A stretch of 64,000 nt of DNA from Thermoleophilum album (GTDB lineage Bacteria; Actinomycetota; Thermoleophilia; Solirubrobacterales; Thermoleophilaceae). The stretch is taken from assembly GCF_028867705.1 (NCBI RefSeq), contig NZ_CP066171.1, forward strand, positions 620,001 to 684,000, written 5' to 3'. Positions 50,315 to 63,459 of this stretch are shown here, piece by piece. The translations under genes and the position numbers were made by a program. The notes under the pieces were generated by a model. It ran no database searches. It worked only from the letters and a program-made list of their open reading frames with translations, and was not told where the DNA came from. Every line of letters begins with the position of its first letter. Position 1 is the first letter of the stretch.

Positions 50315-50378
50315 CGCCCCGGGCGCACCCCTGCTGTGCTGCCTCGCCGGCCCGGCCGGGGCGGGACTAGACTTGGTG

Positions 50379-50772
50379 TTGCTGGCCGAGCAGCCGCGGG
50401 GGAGGCCGGAGAGACAACCGGTCCCCTCGAGGAAAGTCCGGACACCGCAGGGCAGGGTGGTCGGGAAACCGACCCGGGGAAACCCGCGGGAAAGTGCCAC
50501 AGAAACCAAACCGCCTAAGCGGCGGGACCGCACGTGAGTCCCGTCGCCGGCAAGGGTGAAATGGTGCGGTAAGAGCGCACCAGCTGCGTGGCGACACGCA
50601 GGCTGGGCAAACCCCACCCGGTGCAAGGCCAAGCAGGGGCGATGACGCTGCCCGCCGAGCCCCAGGTAGGCCGCAGGGCTCTTCGGAGCCCCGTCCGCGA
50701 TGGTCCGCAGGGATCGGCGCGGGCGAGATAGATGGCTGCTCTCGACAGAATCCGGCTTACAGGCCAGCTACG
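50379..50772 (+). ncRNA. rnpB: RNase P RNA (bacterial type A)
   Basis: All core blocks of the bacterial ribozyme are present in order: GAGGAAAGTCCGGAC (P4 5' strand region), the ACAGAAACC segment, GGTAAGAGCGCACC, GGCAAACCCCACC with GTGCAAGGCCAA, GATAGATGGCTGCTC, and ACAGAATCCGGCTTAC. The 5' end GCTGGCC pairs with GGCCAGC at the 3' end to form P1. It matures tRNA 5' ends with RnpA. The extra open frames across it are not genes. Confidence 0.96.
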
Positions 50773-50805
50773 GGGAGCCCCCGCTTCGGCGGGGGCTCCC
50801 TATTT
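50773..50805 (+). terminator. Terminator of rnpB
   Basis: A perfect 12-bp stem (GGGAGCCCCCGC) closed by a TTCG tetraloop and followed by TATTTC directly adjoins the RNase P RNA. Confidence 0.85.
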
Positions 50806-50922: not shown

Positions 50923-51414
50923 ATGGGCGTAATCGTCGTTCTGCTTCCGTTCCTCGTCGCCGGCTTGATCGTCGCTTTCGCCGCTTTCTTCGGGGGTCCG
51001 TCCGGTGCGCGGCAGGCTTATCTGACGGGCGGGCCGCGCCTCTTCCGGGTGACCGTCGGCCTCATCGTTGCGGTGTGCGGGATCGTCGTGCCGGCGCTCG
51101 CGATCGCGGCGAAACAGGACGCGCTCGGTGGTGTCGGGTCGCTGCGCAACGAAGCTGCCGAAGGCCAGCTCGCGCGCGGCAAGCAGCTCTTCAAGGAAGT
51201 GTGCGCCACCTGCCACACGCTCGATGCCGTGCAGGCCAAGGGTGTGGTAGGTCCGAACCTCGACCAGCTCGCGCCGCTCGACCGCGAGCGGGTTCTGCGC
51301 GCGATCCGCATCGGCGGCACCGGCCAGCAACGGATGCCGGCGGGTCTCTTGAGCGGCGAGGACGCCCAGGCTGTGGCTACGTACGTAGCGCGGGTGGCCG
51401 GCCGCGCCCCCTGA
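50923..51414 (+). CDS. Membrane-anchored monohaem cytochrome c
   Basis: 163 residues. Two N-terminal helices (VIVVLLPFLVAGLIVAFAAFF and VTVGLIVAVCGIVVPALAIAA) anchor a class I cytochrome c domain with the haem site CATCH near residue 92, GVVGPNLDQ, and a probable axial Met in QQRMPAGLL. It is a candidate client of the Ccm system in this window and may shuttle electrons to an oxidase. A TAGAGT hexamer lies 9 nt before the ATG. Confidence 0.88.
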   Translation: MGVIVVLLPFLVAGLIVAFAAFFGGPSGARQAYLTGGPRLFRVTVGLIVAVCGIVVPALAIAAKQDALGGVGSLRNEAAEGQLARGKQLFKEVCATCHTLDAVQAKGVVGPNLDQLAPLDRERVLRAIRIGGTGQQRMPAGLLSGEDAQAVATYVARVAGRAP

Positions 51415-51579: not shown

Positions 51580-51730
51580 CCGCTCCGAACGAGGGCCGAG
51601 GCTCCGGTGCCGTCACCGGGGCGCGGGGGACCCAAAGGGACCGAGCGTTGTCCCAGGGGCGAATCGCGGTCCGAGCACCGCGTAGCGCCGCAGGTGCGAG
51701 CCCGTCAGCTAACTCCGCAGGCCTACAGCG
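51580..51730 (+). promoter_or_regulatory. c-di-AMP riboswitch (ydaO-yuaA type), first copy
   Basis: The conserved blocks of the class are present in order: CCGAA, a variable stem (CCGGTGCCGTCACCGG), GCGGGGGACCCAA, AGGGGCGAATC, and GCGAGCCCGTCAGCTAAC followed by CCGCAGGC. The same blocks occur at 62667-62812. The final block ends 15 nt before the ATG at 51738, without a visible terminator stem or ribosome site between, so control may act on translation start. TACGAT at 51572-51577 is a possible -10 element. Boundaries are approximate. Confidence 0.88.
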
Positions 51731-51737
51731 AGCAGCG

Positions 51738-52172
51738 ATGGAAACGCTGACTACCAAGCCAGGTCGACAGCCTCCGCGCCGGACGGTGCGCATCGGTGGC
51801 GTGAACGGCGCCGGCGGCAGCGGCGCGCGATCGGCGGACCGCGCGCTCAAGCCGTTTCCGCGCGCCGCGCGCAGTGCGGCACGGCTGCGCGAGGCGGGCG
51901 CGGCCCGGTTCGCGCCTGATCGCGCTCTCGATAGGGGTGGGACGGCGTCCGCTCCCGCCGTGCGCGATGCGGTTCGCGGGCGCAGCCTCGACCGTGGGCC
52001 GCGCCGGCCGCGCACCGCTGCGGTCCAGTCTCGCGGCGTGCGGCGGCGTGTCGCGAGCGTGCCGCCGCTAGCCGCGGGCTCGCCCGACCGCTTCGCCGCT
52101 TGGGCATTCGCGCTCGGGGTGCTGCTGGTCGTTGCGGCTGCGACGAGCGCCCACTTCGCCCCGGGCGGCTAG
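51738..52172 (+). CDS. Basic single-pass membrane protein under c-di-AMP riboswitch
   Basis: 144 residues from the ATG at 51738. Residues 1-115 are Arg-rich, low in hydrophobic residues and probably disordered; residues 118-140 (FAAWAFALGVLLVVAAATSAHF) form one membrane helix close to the C-terminus, a tail-anchor-like layout. Third-position GC is high across the frame, which supports coding. I recognise no family. Genes behind c-di-AMP riboswitches usually serve wall remodelling, osmotic balance or K+ transport, so an envelope role is likely but unproven. Confidence 0.6.
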   Translation: METLTTKPGRQPPRRTVRIGGVNGAGGSGARSADRALKPFPRAARSAARLREAGAARFAPDRALDRGGTASAPAVRDAVRGRSLDRGPRRPRTAAVQSRGVRRRVASVPPLAAGSPDRFAAWAFALGVLLVVAAATSAHFAPGG

Positions 52173-62559: not shown

Positions 62560-62666
62560 GACGGTACGGCACTCTTGCAGAGGCGGGCGCTTCGGTGCAC
62601 GCTGCACCAGCGCAGGAGCTGCGCCGCAGGGGATGAATACAGCGGCGAGATCTGATAGCGTGCCGC

Positions 62667-62812
62667 CAACGCCGAATCCGCGCTCGCAAGCGCGGAGCGG
62701 GGGACCCAATTGGTGGCCGGGTGCCACCAGGGGCGAACCCCGCTGCCTCACGGTAGCGGGGAGCGCGATCTCTTCCCGCGCGAGCCCGTCAGCTAACCCC
62801 GCAGGCGTCGGA
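62667..62812 (+). promoter_or_regulatory. c-di-AMP riboswitch (ydaO-yuaA type), second copy
   Basis: CCGAA, a GC hairpin (CCGCGCTCGCAAGCGCGG), GCGGGGGACCCAA, a long stem (TTGGTGGCCGGGTGCCACCA), AGGGGCGAA and GCGAGCCCGTCAGCTAAC followed by CCGCAGGC reproduce the class consensus. The last block ends 14 nt before the GTG of the NlpC/P60-like gene. This regulon (riboswitch before wall hydrolase) is a known actinobacterial arrangement. Boundaries are approximate. Confidence 0.92.
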
Positions 62813-62820
62813 CAGAGACC

Positions 62821-63459
62821 GTGGACCCCGACGGGAAGAAACAACGGCCTGCACGTCTGCTTGCTGTCGCCGCCGCAGCTGCGGCGATCGCTGCCGCTGC
62901 CGCTCCCGCCTTCGCGGAGACCAGCGGAGCGACCGGTTCCAGCGCACCGGCCGCGGCGGGCGCGGTCACGTCCACGGGCGGCGGGGCGATGTACGTGCCG
63001 CCGGCGGGCAAGGCACGGCTCGTCAACGGGCGCGCGATCGCGCCGGCCGACGCGCCGCCCGAGGTGCGCCGCGTCATCGCCTTTGCGAACCGCATCGTTT
63101 CGAAGCCGTACCGCTACGGCGGCGGCCACCGGCCGTTCGCGAAAGGCCTCGACCGCGGCTACGACTGTTCGGGTGCCGTCAGTTACGCGCTTTTCGGGGG
63201 CGGCTTCCTGGACGCGCCGCTCGACTCCGGCTCGCTGATGCGCTGGGGCGAGCGCGGCCGCGGTCGGTGGATCACCGTTTACGCCCACCGCGGCCACACG
63301 TTCCTGGTGGTGGCGGGTCTGCGCTTCGACACCGGCTACCGCGACGCCGAGGCGCGCGCGGCGTCGCGGCGCTTGGGACTGCCCCGCACCGGCCCGCGCT
63401 GGAGCCGCAAGATGCGCCCGACGCGCGGCTACGTCGCTCGGCATCCCGCGGGCTTTTGA
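62821..63459 (+). CDS. Secreted NlpC/P60-like cell-wall peptidase
   Basis: 212 residues from the GTG at 62821. A signal peptide (LLAVAAAAAAIAAAAAPAFA) leads to a short linker and a catalytic domain: VIAFANRIVSKPYRYGGGH, the nucleophilic Cys in RGYDCSGAVSYAL, and His in YAHRGHTFLVVAGLRFDTG. NlpC/P60 enzymes cut peptide stems of peptidoglycan. The family's third polar residue is not obvious. Control by the upstream c-di-AMP riboswitch would tie wall cutting to c-di-AMP levels. Confidence 0.85.
   Translation: MDPDGKKQRPARLLAVAAAAAAIAAAAAPAFAETSGATGSSAPAAAGAVTSTGGGAMYVPPAGKARLVNGRAIAPADAPPEVRRVIAFANRIVSKPYRYGGGHRPFAKGLDRGYDCSGAVSYALFGGGFLDAPLDSGSLMRWGERGRGRWITVYAHRGHTFLVVAGLRFDTGYRDAEARAASRRLGLPRTGPRWSRKMRPTRGYVARHPAGF

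What the first reader, a model, noticed from the sequence alone, without database searches (positions are those of the whole stretch)
51580..52172. c-di-AMP riboswitch controlling an unknown tail-anchored, Arg-rich membrane protein
The RNA is a clear ydaO-type element, but the gene behind it is not a known target class (wall hydrolase, K+ transporter, Rpf). The product has a 115-residue basic, disordered region and a C-terminal helix. The spacing from the RNA to the start codon (15 nt) is almost the same as for the NlpC/P60 gene (14 nt), so both are likely regulated the same way. This may be a new c-di-AMP effector for the envelope.
Basis: partly seen in the sequence, partly recalled or inferred. 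Interest (0 to 1): 0.7.

Follow-up and report, generated by a model that had tools for sequence, protein, structure and literature searches.

The report
Riboswitch-controlled membrane anchor protein family
A real c-di-AMP-sensing RNA sits in front of a real small gene for a single-pass membrane protein; relatives throughout one order of Actinobacteria carry the same gene at the same place, and in a few lineages the same anchor carries a cell-wall-cutting enzyme domain, so it most likely belongs to the cell-wall remodelling programme.

Summary
Confirmed. RF00379 matches 51584-51739 (+) at 52 bits (cut-off 38). The start codon of a 144-aa ORF (51738-52172) overlaps the last bases of the match. 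The ORF is a real, conserved gene: about 80 homologues, usually one per genome, across the order Solirubrobacterales, none convincing elsewhere in the class. Within genera the membrane helix is nearly fixed at the protein level (pN mostly near 0.02, pS near 0.45). RF00379 stands just upstream of 62 of 77 homologues with enough flank; 15 lack it, so the link is strong but not universal. A cytochrome c gene and/or RNase P RNA upstream marks the locus as orthologous. No Pfam, NCBIfam or PDB family matches the protein. It has a basic disordered part with a conserved RRTVxIxG motif and a C-terminal helix (RPDRxAxWAxxLG). Decisive for interpretation: in one genus of family f2 and in family f3, the same riboswitch-anchor is followed by PG_binding_1 plus an RlpA-type DPBB domain, and once by a transglycosylase-like domain. 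So the gene belongs with wall-remodelling genes, not an unrelated target class. Best explanation: a c-di-AMP-repressed tail-anchored adaptor for wall growth. That function is inferred; nothing here shows that the protein binds c-di-AMP.

The parts
51584..51739 (+). c-di-AMP (ydaO/yuaA) riboswitch aptamer, RF00379
   Evidence: cmscan 52.0 bits, gathering 38, full-length model match; RF00379 also upstream of most orthologues
51738..52172 (+). ORF, 144 aa (P0001): tail-anchored, Arg-rich membrane protein of an undescribed family
   Evidence: translation; homologues in the order; purifying selection; no Pfam/NCBIfam family
51777..51800 (+). codons for RRTVRIGG (residues 14-21), the conserved cytoplasmic motif RRTVxIxG
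   Evidence: alignments A2/A4; a loose form of the motif found in 55 of 61 homologues
52083..52154 (+). codons for the C-terminal membrane helix, residues 116-139
   Evidence: AlphaFold2 helix 116-139, block pLDDT 75-96; Kyte-Doolittle maximum 2.07; most conserved block
50923..51414 (+). upstream cytochrome c gene, conserved neighbour of the family
   Evidence: PF13442 4.4e-11; CxxCH cytochrome upstream in 58 of 81 loci checked
50378..50775 (+). RNase P RNA, conserved neighbour in several families
   Evidence: RF00010 205.9 bits; also near homologues
62660..62822 (+). second c-di-AMP riboswitch in the window, for comparison
   Evidence: RF00379 65.2 bits
62821..63459 (+). NlpC/P60-like secreted protein (212 aa) behind the second riboswitch
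   Evidence: ORF; weak PF00877 match, E 0.03, below cut-off; YDCSGAVSYAL motif seen directly

Best explanation
A c-di-AMP riboswitch represses, probably at translation, a short gene for a tail-anchored cytoplasmic adaptor protein. When c-di-AMP is low, the protein is made together with the wall hydrolases behind the genome's other c-di-AMP riboswitches. It inserts by its C-terminal helix with the N-terminus inside; its basic disordered part, through the RRTVxIxG motif and, in other lineages, N-terminal motifs such as WWADVxHLRE, engages a partner of wall growth or division at the membrane. Shown here: the RNA match, the gene, its conservation, the riboswitch linkage, and homology of the anchor with wall-enzyme anchors. 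Inferred: direction of control (from studied actinobacterial ydaO switches), membrane topology, the partner and the adaptor role.
For: RF00379 hit and same-strand RF00379 upstream of 62 of 77 homologues. The genome has a diadenylate cyclase domain. Other riboswitch genes in this genome encode wall-type proteins: NlpC/P60-like, M23-like, PG-binding-like, CAP, and behind a sub-threshold match (27.8 bits) an RlpA-type DPBB protein (M23 and PG-binding read from sequence; the gene behind L003 was not resolved). Many leaders put a GAAAGAGG-type Shine-Dalgarno sequence between P1 and the start codon, leaving no room for a terminator, as in the C. glutamicum nlpC switch reported to act on translation (PMC9960051). 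Genus g22 of family f2 has cytochrome c - riboswitch - WWxEV - anchor - PG_binding_1 - DPBB_1 in one ORF. Family f3 has riboswitch - anchor - PGB - DPBB next to RNase P RNA. Purifying selection. Disordered region plus one helix.
Against: No partner, localisation or phenotype is known. 15 orthologues lack the riboswitch, so c-di-AMP control is not essential to the gene. The window's own Shine-Dalgarno sequence is weak. In the window species the disordered part evolves almost freely (pN 0.05, pS 0.06 between two strains), which argues against a long conserved binding surface. The f3 wall-enzyme forms lack the RRTV motif.
Confidence: 0.5

Rival explanations
1. The ORF is what is left of a riboswitch-controlled RlpA-type wall enzyme after its extracellular part was lost; the anchor is a relic or only a signal-peptide remnant.
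For: The same anchor precedes PGB-DPBB in f3 and g22; the helix ends in AxA in many members, like a signal peptidase site; PGB-DPBB architecture is shared by the two groups, and one origin of their DPBB domains is not rejected (AU p 0.40).
Against: On an rpoB tree the short form is in f1, f4 and most of f2, with the long forms nested: two gains suffice, against many parallel losses (counted by eye). Strong purifying selection on the helix in short forms is not expected of a relic.
Confidence: 0.25
2. The protein serves respiration or cytochrome c maturation, being tied to the cytochrome c gene upstream, and the riboswitch only links it to energy or osmotic state.
For: Cytochrome c upstream in 58 of 81 loci, including many that lack the riboswitch.
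Against: A riboswitch leader lies between the genes; the f3 loci keep riboswitch and anchor without the cytochrome gene found upstream; fusions are to wall domains.
Confidence: 0.12
3. The C-terminal helix is a cleaved signal peptide and the few residues behind it are released as a peptide signal.
For: Helix ends AxA in many members; up to ~40 residues follow in some.
Against: The tail is not conserved, and several members end exactly at AxA.
Confidence: 0.05
4. The ORF is a chance reading frame in GC-rich DNA.
For: Many spurious long frames exist in this window.
Against: Conserved protein with purifying selection and fixed position.
Confidence: 0.01

Closest known systems
ydaO/yuaA c-di-AMP riboswitch, RF00379
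   Same: Full-length match over the curated cut-off; conserved 3' core
   Different: Controls a non-enzymatic short membrane protein; no terminator room in the leader
RlpA-type DPBB lytic transglycosylases with PG_binding_1
   Same: Same riboswitch-anchor at orthologous loci in f3 and genus g22
   Different: The window protein has no extracellular domain at all
Actinobacterial ydaO targets: rpfA of Streptomyces (PMC10117811), nlpC of C. glutamicum (PMC9960051)
   Same: Same RNA class and wall-related regulon
   Different: Those products are cell-wall hydrolases
SepX, actinobacterial division membrane protein (PMC8748795)
   Same: Membrane protein with disordered cytoplasmic parts, no catalytic domain; one of 14 family members hits NCBIfam SepX/GlpR at E 0.021
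   Different: SepX has three predicted membrane segments; the hit is not significant, so this is analogy only

Membership tests
RF00379 c-di-AMP riboswitch | Covariance-model score over the gathering cut-off | tested here: met
   52.0 against 38 bits, model 1-134
RF00379 c-di-AMP riboswitch | Binds c-di-AMP and changes expression | not testable with these tools
   Needs in-line probing or reporters; a diadenylate cyclase domain is present
RlpA-like wall enzymes | DPBB_1 (PF03330) domain | tested here: not met
   No Pfam match in P0001; PF03330 occurs elsewhere in the genome, at G000:C1:1067097
RlpA-like wall enzymes | Shares the riboswitch-anchor locus with PGB-DPBB fusions (not a defining feature of the enzyme family, but evidence of relation) | tested here: met
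   L124, L126-L132, L134, L135
Tail-anchored membrane proteins | Single membrane helix at the C-terminus with a short tail | tested here: met
   Predicted helix 116-139 of 144
Tail-anchored membrane proteins | Inserted with N-terminus inside | not testable with these tools
   Consistent with the basic N-terminal part only
SepX/GlpR | NCBIfam match over cut-off; three membrane segments | tested here: not met
   No match for P0001; one helix

The most novel reading that the evidence does not exclude
An order-wide, single-copy, ancestral family of c-di-AMP-controlled tail-anchored adaptors that recruits wall-synthesis or division machinery, and onto which wall-cutting domains were fused independently at least twice: a non-enzymatic target class for c-di-AMP riboswitches.
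Probability: 0.4. Interest if true: 0.7.

Novelty: new variant of a known kind. Interest (0 to 1): 0.5.

Why it matters
In Actinobacteria almost all genes behind c-di-AMP riboswitches are reported to be wall-related (PMC9960051), and the studied ones are hydrolases. This family is a conserved non-enzymatic target that appears to belong to the same regulon, and the natural fusions to RlpA-type domains give a direct clue to function. It makes a testable question of what, besides hydrolases, c-di-AMP withholds during wall growth.

Tried and rejected
Chance frame: rejected by conservation and selection. Riboswitch always present: rejected, 15 of 77 lack it, and a permissive scan of 8 of those loci plus the near-edge locus L116 found nothing. 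Known family: none in Pfam, NCBIfam or PDB. First rpoB tree was spoiled by picking antisense frames in some genomes and was redone. DPBB tree cannot tell one fusion from two. Named-genome scan gave only 5 loci. SepX lead: E 0.021 in one member, not followed as homology. Literature search for ydaO with RlpA, or c-di-AMP riboswitch with Thermoleophilia: nothing held; two papers looked up by PMC id for the ydaO target lists are not held.

Full report
Observation. The RNA is real: RF00379 matches window 51584-51739 (+) end to end with 52.0 bits against a cut-off of 38. The ORF 51738-52172 starts at an ATG that overlaps the last bases of the model. From the conserved core to the start codon it is 36 nt, against 35 nt for the NlpC/P60-like gene at 62821. 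The genome has seven RF00379 matches, six above the cut-off, and one diadenylate cyclase domain.

The gene. P0001 is basic in its first 117 residues (26 K/R, 8 D/E) with a strong hydrophobic stretch at 119-137. AlphaFold2 on a 14-member alignment gives only helix 116-139 with confidence; the rest is near pLDDT 47-57 up to residue 100. Pfam and NCBIfam have no family for it, nor does the PDB by sequence.

Homologues. A search of relatives with P0001 alone found the C-terminal part in other genera. A profile (A2) then found matches in 94 of 151 genomes of the order at E 0.01, usually one strong match per genome; outside the order only E-values of about 0.002-0.01 appeared. Named records are Thermoleophilaceae, Solirubrobacteraceae and Solirubrobacterales, with one odd title. 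The conserved plan is: variable N-terminus (WWADVxHLRE in many f2 members), variable disordered linker, RRTVxIxG, Arg/Pro-rich stretch, then RPDRxAxWAxxLG and a hydrophobic helix, often ending AxA. In the window species the RRTV motif lies near the N-terminus and the linker follows it.

Selection. In codon comparisons within genera, the helix block has pN mostly 0-0.17 while pS is mostly 0.25-0.6; two g20 pairs with pN 0.3-0.5 probably reflect partial or shifted alignment of that block. Whole ORFs have pN/pS 0.15-0.75 apart from the near-identical strain pair at 0.85. The gene is therefore translated and constrained, the helix most of all.

Linkage to the riboswitch. Of 77 homologous loci with at least 0.9 kb upstream, 62 have RF00379 on the same strand just upstream and 15 do not (tally; one locus by way). 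The 62 include a dozen loci where a wall domain follows the anchor. A permissive scan of nine loci without it, eight of the 15 plus the near-edge locus L116, found nothing. A cytochrome c gene lies upstream in 58 of 81 loci checked, including most of those without the riboswitch, so these are orthologues that lack the RNA. RNase P RNA is a further landmark in f1, f3, f4 and one f2 locus.

The informative relatives. In genus g22 of f2 (L126-L131) the same locus (cytochrome c, riboswitch) encodes WWxEV, the anchor helix, PG_binding_1 and DPBB_1 in one protein; in L126 the RRTV motif is present too. In family f3, riboswitch loci beside RNase P RNA encode a short N-terminus, the anchor helix, PG_binding_1 and DPBB_1 (L124, L132, L134, L135; L143 is cut by its stretch), once a transglycosylase-like domain (L136, PF06737 E 0.011, below cut-off), or an RlpA-type protein with an ordinary signal peptide (L159, L165). 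Pfam was run on L126, L124 and L136; the others are assigned by alignment to these. So the anchor belongs with wall-remodelling genes.

Which form came first. On an rpoB tree f2 branches first and f1, f4, f3 follow; short forms occur in f1, f4 and most of f2, long forms in f3 and g22. By eye, two gains explain this against many losses, so the short form is more likely ancestral, but losses may be easier than gains. A tree of the DPBB domains does not reject one origin (AU p 0.40) and is poorly resolved. I leave this open.

Mechanism. In most leaders a purine-rich GAAAGAGG-type sequence stands between P1 and the start codon, which lies mostly 33-52 nt after the start of the core, leaving no space for a terminator; the window's copy is weak. 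This is the geometry expected for control of translation, as proposed for C. glutamicum nlpC, where c-di-AMP lowers expression (PMC9960051); for Streptomyces rpfA, premature termination is reported (PMC10117811). I infer an OFF switch. The other riboswitch genes of this genome that could be read encode wall-type proteins. The most likely role is a membrane-tethered adaptor made when c-di-AMP is low, alongside the hydrolases. The adaptor role, partner and topology are inference.

Verdict.

Noticed in passing
G000:C1:1066184-1066343 (L007): A sub-threshold RF00379 match (27.8 bits, cut-off 38) stands before a 327-aa ORF with a DPBB_1 domain; probably a diverged c-di-AMP riboswitch.
   Followed up: partly
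L161 (G040:C16), core at 2920 on the minus strand: A c-di-AMP riboswitch core with a good Shine-Dalgarno sequence is followed by a 44-aa hydrophobic ORF, another tiny membrane-like product.
   Followed up: no
L136 (G183:C133): The anchor helix is joined to a transglycosylase-like domain (PF06737, E 0.011, below cut-off) instead of RlpA.
   Followed up: partly
L078 (G002:C5): The homologue seems frameshifted near its start: the first ATG frame stops early and the profile matches in two frames; it may be an assembly error.
   Followed up: no
   Followed up: no
L097, L103, L104, L107, L112, L113, L122: Some f2 homologues share an acidic-aromatic segment before an Arg run (DEDFSWSEPPRRR, GEDIDFVPRRR, GDDLDFTVRQRRR), perhaps a binding motif.
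   Followed up: no
L005 (G000:C1:691626-691766): A c-di-AMP riboswitch stands before a CAP-domain secreted protein (PF00188, 1.8e-6).
   Followed up: partly
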